The translations under genes and the position numbers were made by a program. Below the pieces are notes generated by a model that saw nothing but the letters and a program-made list of their open reading frames with translations, had not been told where the DNA came from and made no database searches. A DNA stretch of 64,000 nt from Maridesulfovibrio salexigens DSM 2638 (lineage in GTDB: Bacteria > Desulfobacterota > Desulfovibrionia > Desulfovibrionales > Desulfovibrionaceae), in assembly GCF_000023445.1 (NCBI RefSeq), contig NC_012881.1, forward strand, positions 1,679,501 through 1,743,500, given 5' to 3'. How positions within the stretch are numbered: the stretch's first letter is position 1; every line of letters begins with the position of its first letter. Of this stretch, positions 58,074 to 63,834 are shown piece by piece.

Positions 58074-58232
58074 TTATCCCAATATAGGCTTTAGGGCTTG
58101 TTTTGCGCCAAAGAGATAGACTTGTATTTGCCAAGTTACTGATAATTAGCTGTATTAATTGTACTGATTTTGTTGGCCTCCTTTATGCAAAATTCAATGA
58201 AAAGAGTAATTAATTTCAGAACAGGAGGCATT

Positions 58233-58727
58233 ATGCTTATCGCTGTAAGTGCAAATAATTCAAATTTGGATGACCAATTTGAACCTCGTTTTGGCAGGGC
58301 TGCTGGTTTTGTGATTTTTAATAGCGAAACAGGCGAAAGTCGATTTATTGATAATTCCGTAAATGCACAGGTTGCTGGCGGGGCTGGATTGCAGACTGCA
58401 CAGTTGCTAGCTGATCAGGGGGTGAACTCCGTTATTTCGGGAACTTTCGGTCCTAAGGCTGAGCAGGCTTTGCAGGCAGGCCACATTGAGATGGTTACCG
58501 TTCAGTCCGGTACCGTGCGCGAACTTGTCGAAAATTATGTGGCTGAAGTTTCCGGAGGGGGTCAGCCTGTTGCGGATTTAAAACGATCACCTAATAGTTT
58601 GAGCCGTTTTGGTGGCGGGTGCCGTCGCATGGGCGGAACTGGCCGTGGAATGGGAATGGCTGGAGGAGGTCGCGGAATGGGCGGCGGAGGCCGTGGTATG
58701 GGAGGTGGAGGGATGGGCCGAAGATAA
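58233..58727 (+). CDS. NifX/NifB C-terminal-like (dinitrogenase cofactor) protein with Gly/Arg/Met tail
   Basis: A 164-residue protein. Residues 1 to about 110 match the dinitrogenase iron-molybdenum cofactor biosynthesis domain (MLIAVSANNSNLDDQFEPRFGRAAGFVIFN, GLQTAQLLADQGVNSVISGTFGPKAEQAL). Residues about 128-164 are GGGRGMGG-type repeats. Family members bind Fe-S or Mo-Fe-S clusters outside nitrogen fixation too; no nif gene is nearby. The start has a CAGGAGG ribosome site; the longer frame to 58170 is not supported. The role is unknown. Confidence 0.88.
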   Translation: MLIAVSANNSNLDDQFEPRFGRAAGFVIFNSETGESRFIDNSVNAQVAGGAGLQTAQLLADQGVNSVISGTFGPKAEQALQAGHIEMVTVQSGTVRELVENYVAEVSGGGQPVADLKRSPNSLSRFGGGCRRMGGTGRGMGMAGGGRGMGGGGRGMGGGGMGRR

Positions 58728-58816: not shown

Positions 58817-59695
58817 TTAGATCAGACCGCTTGCTTTGAGCTGTGCTTCAAGTTTTGCCTTGCTTGCTTCCATGAGCGGAACAAGCGGCAGTCTGAAGGA
58901 TGTCTCAAATTTCCCCATCATGCCCAGTGCTGTTTTCACCGGAATGGGGTTGGTTTCAACGAACATCACCCGGTTCAGGGGCTGCATTTTGAAGTGCAGT
59001 TCCTGAGCCTTTTTCATGTCACCGGCTCTGTATGCTGCACACATGCCGGACATCAAGTCAGGCACGATGTTTGAGACAACGGAGATTACGCCGTGTCCAC
59101 CAAGGGCAAGCAGAGGCAGAACAGTGAAATCATCACCGGAAAGAACGGTAAATCCTTCAGGGCACTGTTCGATTACATCAGAAACCTGACCGAGATTGGC
59201 GGTTGCTTCCTTTACACCAACGACATCGGGAACTTCATTCGCGATCATGGCGATGGTTTCGGGCAGGGCATTAAGTCCTGTACGTCCGGGTACGTTGTAA
59301 AGGATGAAGGGCATTGAAGCTTCTTCGGAAAGGGCTTTGAAATGCGCCAGCAAGCCCGCCGGAGTCGGTTTATTATAGTATGGTGTAATCTGGAGGGTGG
59401 CGTCTGCGCCTGCCTGTTTAGCAAGCTTAGTCAGGTTTACGGCTTCCTTAGTATTGTTTGAACCCGCGCCAGCAATGACCGGGACACGTCCCTTGGCCTG
59501 CTCGACACAGATTCTAATAACCTCACCTTGTTCTTCATGGGTCATTGTTGCCGCTTCGCCGGTAGTACCGCAAGGTACAAGACCGTCGATCCCCTGTTCG
59601 ATCTGCCACTCGATCAGTTCGCGGTATGCGTCCTGATCAATCTCTCCGTCCTTGAACGGAGTGACCAGAGCAGTGAATGCTCCTTGGAATGTCAT
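58817..59695 (-). CDS. dapA: 4-hydroxy-tetrahydrodipicolinate synthase
   Basis: Condenses pyruvate with aspartate semialdehyde in lysine/diaminopimelate synthesis. It is a 292-residue TIM barrel with [11 protein letters not shown] (Thr44/Thr45), YNVPGRTG (Tyr133) and the Schiff-base Lys162 in VVGVKEA. It follows the predicted selenoprotein gene by 21 nt on the same strand, with GGAGG upstream of the ATG. Confidence 0.98.
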
Positions 59696-59716
59696 GTTTA
59701 AGCCTCCAAATTTAAT

Positions 59717-60604
59717 TTACTTATCGTCCGAAATACCACTGAGCAGCTTTGCAACTTCCGGCTCCTCACGAAGCTTTTCAGTCAAGGTTTGCAGAAACCA
59801 TTTTACGTTTTGGCCGGAAGACCAATTAAAGTCCTCATCTCTGGAGGGCCAGCCGTAGATATCGATTCTGTTAACCGCTTTTCCGGTAGGGTAGCTGCGC
59901 ACCCATACAGTCTTACCTTTTGCAGTAAGACTGCCGGAAAGTCCCGGACCGTCACCGCTCCCAAGGAGAATGTCCGGGGGAGCCTCGCCAATGACCGGAT
60001 TGGCGAGAAATTTTTTCTCCCTGAAGTAACCCCATGAACTCATGGCAATTACCAGATCCGCTTTCTCCCTGTTTTCCTTGATCAGTGTGGCGCATTCATC
60101 AATGAGATCATCAGGAAGATTGTCGGAGCCTTTTTCAAGGTATGGAAGAATGATTATTGCGGCCTTCTTGCCATCGGCAAGCGGCTTGTTGATAACCAGA
60201 ACTTCCATGGTGCCGAACCAGTTTTGCGGAATTCCTTTGGGGGAATTTTGCAGAAAACTCATTTCGGCAGGACTAAGAATTCCTAAATCATAATTAATGA
60301 TTTGGAAAGCATCAGTCAGCGCATTTCGTTTTTTATCGGAAACTTTTTTGCCGGAAGTCGGCAGAAATTCAAATGCACCGCCCAATATCAGAACATCGTG
60401 CTTCTGAGCGACCCGCAGATCCATAAGATAACCGGCCCGCCGGGCCAGTCCCCCAAGGGTTTTGTTTCCTCAGGTGGGGCAGGGGTTTACAGTCCCGAAT
60501 GTGTTGGCGGTGTTAGCAATAGACAATAGTACATCCTTGTCAGCATAGGACATCGAGGGTCCCATGCTGACAAGGATAAAAAAAGCAAATATGAGAAGGC
60601 GCAT
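59717..60604 (-). CDS. predicted selenocysteine-containing secreted protein (UshA/metallophosphatase-like)
   Basis: About 295 residues if the TGA at codon 45 is read as selenocysteine. The ATG overlaps the HU stop (TAATG). Residues 1-21 are a Sec signal peptide (MRLLIFAFFILVSMGPSMSYA). Then comes NTFGTVNPCPT-U-GNKTLGGLARRAGYL, where other proteins with this C-x-x-C / LGGLARR pattern would have cysteine. The remainder (DVLILGGAFEFL, DLVIAMSSWGYF) resembles a UshA-type metallophosphoesterase domain, probably lacking several metal ligands. If the TGA is a true stop, translation would need to restart at Met61 (60424), which lacks a signal peptide. A redox or metal role for C-x-x-U is inferred. 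Confidence 0.75.
60431..60472 (-). promoter_or_regulatory. in-frame UGA with bacterial SECIS-like hairpin
   Basis: The TGA is at 60472-60470. Twenty-eight nt later on the minus strand is an 8-bp stem ACTGGCCC/GGGCCGGT with loop GGC (60449-60431). A short stem-loop with G at the start of the loop about 16-37 nt after UGA is the form expected of bacterial SECIS elements read by SelB. Confidence 0.7.
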
Positions 60605-60879
60605 TAAGCGTTCAAATATTCTTTCAGCTCTTTACCGGGACGGAAAAAAGGCAGTTTTTTAGGGGTGACGTCTACGACATCCCCTGTTTTCGGGTTACGT
60701 CCGGTGTACCCTTTGTATTCTTTCATCTTAAAGCTGCCGAATCCTCTGATTTCAACTCTGTCGCCGCGAACAAGCGCCTCTTTGATGGCATCTACAAATG
60801 CATCAACAATTTCGGCTGATTCATCCACGTGGAGACCTTTTTCTTCCGCAAGACTCTTGATCAGTTCGCTTTTGTTCAT
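60604..60879 (-). CDS. HU family DNA-binding protein
   Basis: A 91-residue HU/IHF-type protein that bends and packs DNA. It shows the family signature GFGSFKMKEYKGYTGRNPKTGDVVDV and the FFRPGKELKEYLN end; the arm proline is in RNPKTG. The start at 60879 has GAGAGGA upstream; a longer frame to 60927 is not needed. Its stop overlaps the next start (TAATG). Confidence 0.95.
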   Translation of the reverse strand: MNKSELIKSLAEEKGLHVDESAEIVDAFVDAIKEALVRGDRVEIRGFGSFKMKEYKGYTGRNPKTGDVVDVTPKKLPFFRPGKELKEYLNA

Positions 60880-60973
60880 GTCCTCTCCCACATCGTGTTG
60901 AGTGTGACAAGCTAGTGTTATTACCATTTCTAATACAACTATGCCGAAAAGTTACCCTTTTCGTCAAGCATAA

Positions 60974-61798
60974 TTAGTCGTCCAGTGTAGGAAATTTTTT
61001 CATGACAGGTCTTTCACTGAGTCTACCCATATTTTCCATTCTGATCTTCTGAATTTTTACAGCAATATTCAGGATATCGCGGCTTGCTTCAGATTTAGGA
61101 GCATACTTAATAAAAGGAATCTGCCGTCTTACAGCTTCTGTTACTGCAGGATCATAGCGCACATAACCCATATTTTTCAACTTAATATTAAGAAATTTTT
61201 CGCAGGCCATATTTAAGCGGTTAAAAGTCTCCCGTGCTTCTTTCTCATTCGTAGCCTGATTGACTACTATATTGAAATCGCTGACATTATGCTGAGAATG
61301 CAGAACCTTGATCAGTGCGTAACTGTCTGTCAGTGATGTCGGTTCCGGGGTAATTACCACAATTCTCATCTGTGTCATGGCAGCGAAAGAGAGTACTGTT
61401 CCGTTGATTCCGGCTCCGAGGTCGAGCACCAGATACTGATATCCGCCGACAAGTTCAGTTATTTTACTGAACAGCAGATCCTGCATGTCTTCATCCATTT
61501 CGACCAGTTCAGGCACACCGGAAGCTGCGGGCAGGATGTCGAATTTCTTTCCCTGTTCAATAGGGATTACAATATCAGATGGCTTGGCACCGCTGGTCAG
61601 GAGATCCTGCATGTTTGATTCAGGGGAAATCCCCAGCAGAACGTCCAGGTTTGCCAGTCCGAGGTCGCAGTCCATGAGCAGCAGGCTGTTGCCTCCGGTA
61701 TTCAAGGCATAGGAAAGATTAAGGGATAGGTTGGTTTTACCGACTCCGCCCTTACCGCTCATGATAGCAAGGCTTAATGTTTTATTGGCGTTGATCAT
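60974..61798 (-). CDS. MinD/ParA-family ATPase (FlhG-like)
   Basis: A 274-residue P-loop ATPase with deviant Walker A SGKGGVGKTNLSLNL (residues 14-28), DCDLGLANLDVLLG and LDLGAGINGTVL. The C-terminal part (YAPKSEASRDILNIAVKI) resembles FlhG/YlxH, which controls flagellar number and place with FlhF. No flagellar gene is in the window, so the FlhG call is from resemblance only. It may instead be another MinD-type positioning ATPase. Confidence 0.88.
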   Translation of the reverse strand: MINANKTLSLAIMSGKGGVGKTNLSLNLSYALNTGGNSLLLMDCDLGLANLDVLLGISPESNMQDLLTSGAKPSDIVIPIEQGKKFDILPAASGVPELVEMDEDMQDLLFSKITELVGGYQYLVLDLGAGINGTVLSFAAMTQMRIVVITPEPTSLTDSYALIKVLHSQHNVSDFNIVVNQATNEKEARETFNRLNMACEKFLNIKLKNMGYVRYDPAVTEAVRRQIPFIKYAPKSEASRDILNIAVKIQKIRMENMGRLSERPVMKKFPTLDD

Positions 61799-61873: not shown

Positions 61874-62725
61874 TCAGCTTCCCGTGAATAAGAATTTCTT
61901 CTCATTGGCGTGTACAAGGGTTTCCTTGGTCACTGTTTCAAAATCAAGAATATCAGCTGAGCAAACCTGATCCTTACCGGACTCTTTGGCTTCATACAGA
62001 GCCTTGTCAGCCTTGCTGATCAGTTCATGCATTTCAACTTCCACCATACCTTTAAAGCAGGAAATTCCGGCGGAGCAGGTTATTGAAAAAGTTTCATTGC
62101 TCCCCGGCTTGGCAAAAGTCAGTCCGCGCACTTTATCCAGCAATCTTTCCAGTAGTTGTTTGGCCTTTACAAGGCCCACACCTGAAAGGATGATTGCGAA
62201 TTCTTCTCCTCCGATTCGGGCAACAAGGTCATAGCGGCGTGAGTTCTGAGAAAGGAGATCTGCAAAATCAATTAAGACTTCATCTCCTTTCAGGTGTCCC
62301 CACGTATCGTTAATTTTTTTGAAATTATCCAGATCAAGAATAGCCAGAGTAAGAGGAGTCTTGCTCCTTCTAGTCCTTTCAATTTCCTGATCAAGGGTTC
62401 TTTCAAAGACCCGTCGGTTGGAGAGTCCTGTAAGAGGATCATGTTCTGTCTTGTAGGAGAGTTCCTGAAGAACAGATTGCACATGGTTAAGATGCGGGGC
62501 CATGTTCCGGTCAAGAGGAACGGTCATCCAATCATTTAAACCGTGCCTTTCCGCAAGAATTTCCCAAGCCTTGAGAGTCATGCCCGGACAGAGCCGTAAA
62601 ACGGCAAGTCCTTCCGGGCACTCGTGCGTGTGGCAGACTTCTTTTTCATTACAGAATCTGTCTCGCACGGAAATAAGCTCTTCGAGAAGGCTGGCTTCAT
62701 TTTCAGCGATGTACTCAGCGCTCAT
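61874..62725 (-). CDS. GGDEF-domain diguanylate cyclase with N-terminal Cys/His cluster
   Basis: A 283-residue soluble protein. The C-terminal GGDEF domain (about 108-265) has HDPLTGLSNRR, ILDLDNFKKINDTWGH and the active-site GGEEF, with an intact RxxD inhibitory site (RRYD) five residues before it. It should therefore make cyclic di-GMP with product inhibition. The N-terminal 100 residues carry Cys25, Cys31, His32, His34, Cys36 and Cys46, perhaps a metal-binding sensor. The ATG overlaps the prfB end and has CGGAG upstream. Confidence 0.9.
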   Translation of the reverse strand: MSAEYIAENEASLLEELISVRDRFCNEKEVCHTHECPEGLAVLRLCPGMTLKAWEILAERHGLNDWMTVPLDRNMAPHLNHVQSVLQELSYKTEHDPLTGLSNRRVFERTLDQEIERTRRSKTPLTLAILDLDNFKKINDTWGHLKGDEVLIDFADLLSQNSRRYDLVARIGGEEFAIILSGVGLVKAKQLLERLLDKVRGLTFAKPGSNETFSITCSAGISCFKGMVEVEMHELISKADKALYEAKESGKDQVCSADILDFETVTKETLVHANEKKFLFTGS

Positions 62726-63834
62726 TTTCTCCGCCGTATGCGTCAAGCATGAATTTCCTGATCAGACCATCGAGTTCACCGTCCAGAACCGCTTCGACAT
62801 TTCCGTCTTCGGCTCCGCAGCGATGGTCTTTGACCAGTCGGTAAGGTTGCAGAGTGTATGTCCTGATCTGACTGCCGAATCCGATAGAATCCTTGGTGGC
62901 ATAGTCAGCTCTCTTGCTTTCTTCCTGCCTCTTCAGTTCCTGCTCGTAGAGTCGGGACTTGAGGACTTTCATTGCGGTTTCTTTGTTTTTCAGCTGTGAC
63001 TTTTCATTCTGGCACTGAACAACAATATTTGTGGGCAGATGGGTAATGCGTACCGCAGAGTTGGTCTTGTTGACGTGCTGCCCTCCGGGACCGCTGGCCC
63101 TGAAAACGTCAAGCCGGATATCTTCGTCTTTTACTTCAATTTCGATGTCCTGTGAAATTTCAGGATAAACGTCTACTGAAGCAAACGAAGTATGCCTTCT
63201 GCCGGAAGCATCAAAAGGAGAAATACGGATCAAACGATGGATACCGGCTTCACCTTTGAGAAAACCATAGGCGTAAAGTCCTTCAATGCGAAGGGTTACA
63301 CTCTTGATACCTGCTTCATCGTCAGGCTGGTAGTCCAGATAACTGGTTTTCCAGTTCCGTTTGTCTGCCCAGCGAAGATACATGCGCAGGAGCATTTCGG
63401 CCCAATCCTGTGACTCAATTCCACCGGCACCGGGGTGAATCTCAAGAATGGCTGTACTTTTATCTTCCGGCCCGGAAAGCAGGGCGGCAAGCTCAGTCTG
63501 TTCCACAAGCTTGGCAAGCTTTTCAACGTTCTCTGAAAGGGCTTCGAGGATTTCCTGATCCTGATCCTCAGAGGCCATCATCAGCCATTCTTCAACATCG
63601 TCTTTGCTGGAAGTAAGATTGTCGTATGATGTGACTTTTTCTTCCAGCATGGATTTCTCGCGCAGGACCGGAGTCAGTGCGTCCGGTTTATCCCATGCAC
63701 CGGGCTTGCTCAGGTCGTGTTCTATCTCTTCAAGCCTTTCCTTGCTTTGAGCGTGGTCAAAGACGCCCCCAGAGGGATTCATATTTTTGTATGCAGGTTA
63801 AGGCCTTGGATCTGAGGTCTGAAAATTGAAGCAT
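62715..63834 (-). CDS. prfB: peptide chain release factor 2 (programmed +1 frameshift)
   Basis: Release factor for UGA and UAA. Frame one (ATG 63834) gives MLQFSDLRSKALTCIQKYES then LWGRL and stops at TGA (63759-63757). A +1 shift at CTT TGA C joins DHAQSKERLEEIEHDL and the rest, giving about 372 residues. The SPF tripeptide (RISPFDASGRR) selects UGA/UAA, and GGQ lies in SGPGGQHVNKTNSAVR. AAAGGAAT precedes the ATG. Reading only the second frame gives a false 355-residue product starting at 63782. It follows lnt by 17 nt. Confidence 0.95.
63756..63771 (-). promoter_or_regulatory. prfB programmed frameshift site
   Basis: TGGGGGCGTCTTTGAC on the minus strand: a G-rich Shine-Dalgarno-like stretch, then the slippery CTT directly before the in-frame TGA and a C. 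It matches the E. coli arrangement (AGGGGGTATCTTTGAC). Confidence 0.92.

What the first reader, a model, noticed from the sequence alone, without database searches (positions are those of the whole stretch)
59717..60604. Probable selenoprotein: signal peptide, CPT-UGA-G motif and SECIS-like hairpin
The minus-strand frame starting at 60604 (TAATG overlap with the HU stop) encodes a signal peptide and reaches an in-frame TGA at codon 45 inside CPT-TGA-GNKTLGGLARRAG. It then runs open for 250 codons. The residues on both sides of the TGA form one recognisable motif, so the TGA is not the end of the gene. A stem ACTGGCCC/GGGCCGGT with a GGC loop begins 28 nt after the TGA, in the expected bacterial SECIS window. 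A C-x-x-U pair in a secreted metallophosphatase-like protein is not a selenoprotein family I know.
Basis: partly seen in the sequence, partly recalled or inferred. Interest (0 to 1): 0.9.

Follow-up and report, generated by a model that had tools for sequence, protein, structure and literature searches.

The report
Known periplasmic selenoprotein (UshA-like family 2)

Summary
In detail: a minus-strand ORF from 60604 with a signal peptide, TGA at codon 45 (60472-60470) in C-P-T-U-G, then 250 open codons. TGA very probably encodes selenocysteine. Of 132 aligned rows, own gene included, the site is Sec in 109, Cys in 22, and one row is shifted. The genome has selA, selB, tRNA-Sec and selD. In 161 genomes Sec or Cys form tracks selA, with ten exceptions. 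The hairpin overlaps protein-conserved codons, but its wobble pair 29/35 forms in 95 of 106 Sec genes against 11 of 20 Cys genes. The family is not new: 305 bits (cut-off 140) to NCBIfam NF049981, 'UshA-like (seleno)protein family 2', listed as CxxU in a 2026 review. My addition: the family is related to UshA/5'-nucleotidases but shows no conserved His and most metal ligands are replaced, so it is probably not a phosphatase. A periplasmic Cys/Sec redox or sulfur-transfer role is my best guess (about 0.45).

The parts
59717..60604 (-). Selenoprotein gene: UshA-like (seleno)protein family 2, 295 aa with Sec45
   Evidence: NF049981 E 4e-91, 305.1 bits against cut-off 140; Sec or Cys at the site in 131 of 132 aligned rows, the other row shifted by one
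60542..60604 (-). Putative signal peptide, residues 1-21 (...MSYA|DK)
   Evidence: read by eye from the translation; no signal-peptide program was available
60470..60481 (-). C42-P43-T44-U45 motif; TGA (Sec) at 60472-60470
   Evidence: Cys42 in 107 of 109 core rows, U 88 + C 21 of 109 at position 45
60431..60449 (-). SECIS-like hairpin, 8 pairs, loop GGC at 60441-60439
   Evidence: fold; pairs in 106 Sec and 20 Cys genes
60604..60927 (-). Context: HU/IHF-family DNA-binding protein, stop overlaps the selenoprotein start (real start probably ATG at 60879)
   Evidence: IHF-beta model 1e-28, below its cut-off; a homologue directly upstream in 89 of 96 core loci
58817..59695 (-). Context: dapA, 4-hydroxy-tetrahydrodipicolinate synthase, downstream
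   Evidence: TIGR00674 2.5e-106; homologue in 63 of 92 core loci with at least 1.4 kb downstream
60974..61798 (-). Context: MinD/ParA-like ATPase, upstream
   Evidence: minD models, below cut-offs; 38 of 41 core loci with at least 2.6 kb upstream
61874..62746 (-). Context: GGDEF diguanylate cyclase, upstream
   Evidence: TIGR00254 2.9e-49; 38 of 41
62715..63834 (-). Context: prfB (release factor 2) with CTT-TGA-C frameshift site, TGA at 63759-63757
   Evidence: TIGR00020 1.3e-149 for the part from 63782; sequence; 40 of 41

Best explanation
This is a genuine selenoprotein gene of a Desulfovibrio-related bacterium and a member of UshA-like (seleno)protein family 2. UGA45 is decoded as selenocysteine, probably with the help of a hairpin whose loop lies 29 nt downstream, giving a secreted 295-aa protein with a Cys42-x-x-Sec45 pair. 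The protein descends from the UshA/5'-nucleotidase/SoxB type of metallophosphoesterase, but the di-metal site is largely gone. Function (inferred, about 0.45): a periplasmic thiol/selenol redox or sulfur-transfer protein in which Sec45 attacks a disulfide, persulfide or other sulfur substrate in the former metal pocket, assisted by invariant Arg55/Arg56, and Cys42 resolves the intermediate as a selenenylsulfide. Shown here: the frame, family, Sec/Cys exchange, machinery, better hairpin pairing in Sec genes, replaced ligands. Inferred: export, the chemistry, the substrate, the position of the pair in the fold. The confidence given is for identity and Sec decoding.
For: Family: NF049981, 305.1 bits, cut-off 140. 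Site: 132 aligned rows, own gene included, give U 109, C 22, 1 shifted by one; C42 in 107 of 109 core rows. Machinery in the same 4.29-Mb genome: selA, selB, tRNA-Sec 82.5 bits, gathering 47, selD with 1 TGA. Co-occurrence, tabulated by hand: of 148 genomes with a copy holding one in-frame TGA, 141 have selA; of 13 with TGA-free copies only, 3 have it (Fisher p 2e-9). In group g26 the two TGA-form genomes (G281, G287) have selA and selB; the seven Cys-form genomes (G168, G170, G179, G198, G223, G233, G291) lack selA and six of the seven lack selB. The fewest Sec/Cys changes on a quick tree of 120 rows is 7; starred branches alone force 2. Hairpin: pair 29/35, third codon positions on both sides, formed in 95 of 106 Sec and 11 of 20 Cys genes (p 6e-4); the second Arg codon is CGG in 71 of 106 Sec genes against 306 of 1325 Arg codons elsewhere in the aligned part of these genes. 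Ancestry: profile A1 against A2 probability 100 over 261 columns; A2 against 5'-nucleotidase 2z1a 3.4e-33 and UshA 4wwl 3.3e-23.
Against: Seven genomes with a TGA copy gave no selA hit (G189, G210, G251, G256, G279, G288, G289); five of the six tested had selB, G289 had neither, G251 was not tested. All seven are draft assemblies of 140 or more contigs, 82-96% complete, but so are most of the ten Cys-form genomes without selA. Three genomes (G023, G095, G247) have selA and only a Cys copy. Folding energy does not separate Sec from Cys genes well (mean z -0.88 and -0.47). CGG at the second Arg is also frequent in Cys genes (10 of 20, against 44 of 177 elsewhere in them), as is CGG at the first Arg (77 of 106 Sec, 13 of 20 Cys). 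The genes are related, so counts and p-values are not independent. For the redox role: 4 of 132 rows keep Sec but lack Cys42, the conserved neighbours that I named are not redox genes, and no usable structure was obtained (pLDDT 34.8).
Confidence: 0.93

Rival explanations
1. Sec45/Cys42 is a soft-metal or metalloid binding site (for example Hg, Cu, Se species) of a periplasmic binding or detoxification protein, not a redox pair.
For: Replacement of the His/Asp ligands of the old metal site with a conserved C/U pair kept; four rows keep U without Cys42.
Against: The conserved neighbours that I identified are not metal-transport or resistance genes; a lone U in four rows would be a poor chelate.
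Confidence: 0.25
2. It is still a metal-dependent phosphoesterase/nucleotidase in which Cys/Sec is an added ligand or regulator.
For: Profile relationship to UshA, 5'-nucleotidases and SoxB; Glu79 and Glu114 are conserved in 105 and 95 of 109 core rows, and E79 may stand for the motif II Asp.
Against: No His, Asp or Asn column reaches 90% in the 55-row alignment; at the positions mapped to motif I, III, IV and V His, His is found in 5, at most 11, 1 and 0 of 109 core rows (for motif III only the eight commonest letters, 98 rows, were printed and none is His).
Confidence: 0.12
3. TGA is a true stop: an early nonsense mutation, with a shorter protein started at ATG 60424 or a dead gene.
For: An ATG exists in frame at 60424.
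Against: The family is found in 42 of 53 genus groups of the class sample, mostly with one in-frame TGA; TGC or TGT replaces it in the Cys forms, ten of which are in genomes without a selA hit; the Cys and the N-terminal part before the TGA are conserved.
Confidence: 0.02

Closest known systems
NCBIfam NF049981 UshA-like (seleno)protein family 2 (Table 1 of PMC13188914: CxxU, example WP_420705249.1, GenBank annotated)
   Same: Residues 27-288 on model 1-261 of 262, above cut-off, CxxU motif
   Different: Nothing found that sets it apart; an ordinary member
NCBIfam NF041198 UshA-like (seleno)protein, PCGU, CxU (Table 1 of PMC13188914; a CxU UshA-like/COG0737 entry also in PMC9312934 and PMC2398784)
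   Same: Homologous, Sec in the same place before GGLAR(R/K)
   Different: CxU instead of CxxU, 519-position model; window protein scores 37.5 against a cut-off of 275. The 19 distant relatives in A2, which all match this model better or worse than family 2, keep more of the metal motifs
UshA / 5'-nucleotidase / SoxB metallophosphoesterases (4wwl, 2z1a, 2wdc)
   Same: Profile relationship: direct for 5h7w and 2z1a at E 2e-4 and 1e-3, strong through A2
   Different: 295 aa against 509-579 aa for the UshA and 5'-nucleotidase chains listed; metal ligands mostly replaced; Sec/Cys pair present

Membership tests
NF049981 UshA-like (seleno)protein family 2 | Score above curated cut-off (140 bits) | tested here: met
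   305.1 bits; 296.4 bits in the genome search
NF049981 UshA-like (seleno)protein family 2 | CxxU motif | tested here: met
   C42-P-T-U45; review lists CxxU
Bacterial selenoprotein | Sec machinery selA, selB, selC, selD in the genome | tested here: met
Bacterial selenoprotein | Cys-containing homologues aligned with the TGA | tested here: met
   22 of 132 aligned rows: TGC in 21, TGT in 1; six more TGC
Bacterial selenoprotein | bSECIS hairpin just downstream of UGA | tested here: inconclusive
   hairpin present; synonymous-site pairing favours it; folding z-scores weak; SelB binding not testable, bSECISearch not available
Bacterial selenoprotein | Sec detected in the protein | not testable with these tools
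   needs mass spectrometry or 75Se
NF041198 UshA-like PCGU | Score above cut-off 275; CxU spacing | tested here: not met
   37.5 bits; spacing is CxxU
UshA/5'-nucleotidase metallophosphoesterase | Conserved di-metal ligands (D-x-H, GD, NH, H, HxH; motifs recalled, positions mapped through) | tested here: not met
   109 core rows: D in 4 at motif I Asp, H in 5 at motif I His, H in 1 at motif IV, G in 109 at the first motif V His. Motif II Asp is uncertain: it maps to A77 or to conserved E79 depending on the alignment
UshA/5'-nucleotidase metallophosphoesterase | Pfam Metallophos domain | tested here: not met
   no Pfam hit up to E 1 for the window protein; 2 of 19 distant relatives hit PF00149
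Thiol-disulfide oxidoreductase | Redox-active C-x-x-C/U pair and activity | not testable with these tools
   motif present; activity unknown; no usable model

The most novel reading that the evidence does not exclude
A metallophosphoesterase fold has been converted into a metal-free periplasmic selenoenzyme: the di-metal site was lost and a Cys-Pro-x-Sec pair next to motif I took over catalysis on a sulfur or selenium substrate, with repeated Sec-to-Cys change in lineages that lost the Sec machinery.
Probability: 0.4. Interest if true: 0.55.

Novelty: already known. Interest (0 to 1): 0.25.

Why it matters
The finding is a correct reading, from raw sequence, of an already catalogued kind of selenoprotein. 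Its value is as test material: a small family of unknown function with natural Sec and Cys versions, within single genus groups, that seems to have lost phosphatase chemistry. Finding out what it does would explain why so many of these bacteria (159 of 297 genomes in the class sample have a copy over the cut-off, most with the TGA) spend selenium on it.

Tried and rejected
Rfam at E up to 1 over 59500-61100 gave only a sub-threshold c-di-GMP-I-UAU match (23.4 bits, gathering 65.9) inside the coding frame; taken as chance. Folding z-scores of 43 nt downstream of the site as a general test of the SECIS hairpin: weak, so I counted pairs at synonymous positions instead. A scan of the viral collection gave 23 candidate stretches and no relative; the genome collection gave 82 and one relative (L051, 62%). 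AlphaFold2 with two sequences (window and L051) gave pLDDT 34.8, so no fold search was made. I first read the motif II Asp as G76; the profile alignments place it at A77 or E79, so I do not claim that ligand lost. Neighbours as a clue to function: prfB, GGDEF, MinD-like, HU-like and dapA homologues are conserved but name no redox partner; the neighbour clusters beyond these were not identified.

Rows dropped: of 154 matched stretches, 132 that run from model position 25 or less to 215 or more went into; shorter or split ones (for example those of L082, L142-L149, L053) were left out. In one search, 3 of 109 Sec and 2 of 22 Cys genes were left out because GG is not at the usual distance from the site. 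One row (L080) is shifted by one in the alignment, which is why it shows F at the site.

The table of Sec/Cys form against selA was made by hand from the printed lists. It covers 161 of the 162 family-positive genomes: G290 was left out (one match, E 8e-4, model 25-188, below the cut-off); G271 and G275, whose genes are in pieces below the cut-off, were kept as TGA forms. 'TGA form' means one in-frame TGA inside the match; that it lies at the site was checked only for the rows. Of the 17 genomes counted as without selA, six are printed as negative and the other eleven were tested again and are negative. Before, made when checking this report, the neighbour counts rested on unlabelled clusters and those eleven on absence from a printed list.

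Searches for earlier print: (held library only). None of the listings showed me a functional study of this family; I did not search outside that library. Seen as passages: PMC13188914, PMC2398784, PMC9312934. All other papers: search listings only. No paper was read in full.

Full report
What is there. The minus strand from 60604 to 59717 encodes MRLLIFAFFILVSMGPSMSYADKDV... with a TGA at codon 45 (60472-60470) in NPCPT-TGA-GNKTLGGLARRAG, followed by 250 sense codons and TAA. The ATG overlaps the TAA of an HU/IHF-family gene. A gene caller that treats TGA as stop could start at ATG 60424 and would lose the signal peptide and the motif (inference).

Family. With TGA read as Sec the protein matches NCBIfam NF049981 'UshA-like (seleno)protein family 2' at 305.1 bits (cut-off 140) over nearly the whole model, and only weakly the sister model NF041198 (37.5 bits, cut-off 275). 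Pfam gives nothing up to E 1. Table 1 of the 2026 review PMC13188914 lists 'UshA-like selenoprotein family 2, NF049981, CxxU' as GenBank annotated (passages seen). A search of the held library for NF049981 returns that paper alone. A CxU UshA-like entry (COG0737) is already in PMC2398784 of 2008 (passage).

Is TGA selenocysteine? The genome (one contig, 4.29 Mb) has selA, selB, tRNA-Sec and selD, itself with an in-frame TGA in KAAGUAAKIAP. In 297 genomes of the class, 162 have a family match, 159 over the cut-off. Of 132 distinct aligned rows from the fetched loci (109 from the class, called core, which include the window's own gene, and 23 more distant), the site is U in 109, C in 22, and one row is shifted by a residue. 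Taking the forms and selA, of 148 genomes with a TGA copy 141 have selA and 7 do not; of 13 with Cys copies only, 3 have selA and 10 do not (Fisher p 2e-9; the genomes are related, so this is not a strict probability). Five of the six selA-negative TGA genomes that I tested have selB, one (G289) has neither, and G251 was not tested. Group g26 is a small natural experiment: G281 and G287 have TGA, selA and selB; G168, G170, G179, G198, G223, G233 and G291 have TGC and no selA hit, and six of these seven have no selB hit. The same holds for the pair G055 (TGA, both genes) and G243 (Cys, neither; 85% complete). Many of these are draft genomes of 78-97% estimated completeness, so single absences are soft. 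On a quick tree of 120 rows with the site masked, 7 changes are needed at the fewest, and starred branches alone force 2.

The hairpin. The stem A60449-C60442 / G60438-T60431 with loop GGC lies on the codons of the conserved GGLARRA. Because the protein sequence fixes most of the stem, I looked at positions free to vary. Pair 29/35 joins the third positions of the Ala and the second Arg codons: it is formed in 95 of 106 Sec genes and 11 of 20 Cys genes (Fisher p 6e-4). Pair 26/38, also third positions, is formed in 93 of 106 and 13 of 20. The second Arg codon is CGG in 71 of 106 Sec genes, although CGG is 306 of 1325 Arg codons elsewhere in the aligned part of the same genes; in Cys genes the same codon is CGG in 10 of 20, against 44 of 177 elsewhere, so part of this preference is shared or inherited. 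The outer pairs are loose: 24/40 in 47 of 106, 23/41 in 61 of 106. Folding energies as such separate the groups poorly. So a short apical helix under RNA-level selection is likely; its recognition by SelB is not tested.

Ancestry and active site. The profile of 55 core members (A1) matches the profile of 19 more distant CxU/CxxU relatives (A2) with probability 100 over 261 columns. A2 matches 5'-nucleotidases, UshA and SoxB, and A1 reaches venom 5'-nucleotidase directly at E 2e-4. Carried through these alignments, the metal motifs (recalled) read in the window protein as N34-T-F36 for D-x-H, P112-A113 for N-H, S190 for the later His, and G217/G219 for H-x-H. Over the 109 core rows these are N 94, D 4 (motif I Asp); H 5 (motif I His); H 1 (motif IV); G 109 and G 96 (motif V). 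The motif II Asp maps to A77 or to E79 (Glu in 105 of 109), depending on the alignment, and I leave it open. Without any mapping, no His, Asp or Asn column reaches 90% in A1; the invariant columns are residue 45 (Sec or Cys), G51, G52, R55, R56, G217 and G241. The more distant relatives keep more: some have NDTHG, LDAGD, LSHLG or GGH. This looks like stepwise loss of a metal site while the Cys/Sec pair stayed (inference).

How it may work. With a signal peptide, a Sec at an invariant position, a nearly invariant Cys three residues before it (107 of 109 core, 21 of 23 distant rows), and two invariant Arg, the simplest reading is thiol/selenol chemistry: Sec45 as nucleophile, Cys42 as resolving residue. 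Against a fixed selenenylsulfide pair, four rows (L117, L141, L076, L078) keep U but lack the Cys. Soft-metal binding remains a serious rival. The neighbourhood is conserved: an HU-like gene directly upstream in 89 of 96 core loci, prfB, GGDEF and MinD-like genes in 40, 38 and 38 of the 41 core loci with enough upstream sequence, dapA in 63 of 92 with enough downstream sequence; no such hits in the 23 distant loci. It offers no obvious redox partner. The two-sequence AlphaFold2 model is unusable.

Verdict. The reading as a selenoprotein is right, and the evidence for it is strong. The family is catalogued, so the finding is not new. The loss of most of the metal site combined with a Cys/Sec pair is the point a specialist might find worth following; I found no statement of it in the passages I saw, but read no paper in full.

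Noticed in passing
63834-63757 (-), prfB: prfB starts earlier than the listed ORF: ATG at 63834 leads in frame to GGGGGCGTCTT-TGA-C, the classical release factor 2 frameshift site (recalled). A second recoded UGA thus lies 3.3 kb from the Sec codon, and prfB is in 40 of 41 core loci with enough upstream sequence. Release factor 2 is the factor that competes at UGA (recalled).
   Followed up: partly
L087, L084, L085 and other loci of group g7: Genomes of this group carry a Cys form (CPTC) and a Sec form (CPSU) side by side, a natural pair for comparing the two chemistries.
   Followed up: partly
L117, L141, L076, L078: Four relatives keep the UGA codon but lack the partner Cys (IKAU, EAGU, DSGU, VHSU), so Sec, not the pair, is the more constrained residue.
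   Followed up: partly
G210 and G256 (group g53; L153, L104/L150): Both sampled genomes of this group have the TGA form and selB but no selA hit down to E 1e-20; incomplete drafts or a divergent route to Sec-tRNA.
   Followed up: no
L010:1489-2529 (+): selD of this genome has an in-frame TGA (KAAGUAAKIAP), so SelD is probably itself a selenoprotein, as known elsewhere (recalled).
   Followed up: no
L142/L146/L149 (G275) and L143/L145 (G271): In two draft assemblies the family gene is in pieces: several frames, one with a TAG, in G275; two contigs in G271. Disrupted gene or assembly error.
   Followed up: no
58170-58727 (+): Protein with a Gly/Met-rich tail encoded by a 21-bp tandem repeat (58653-58711), following what looks by eye like a NifX/NifB-type domain.
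   Followed up: no
L053:583-2211 (-): The same genome also has a 542-aa UshA/5'-nucleotidase-like protein with LGNHEF and without the Cys/Sec motif; its NCBIfam matches are all below cut-off.
   Followed up: partly
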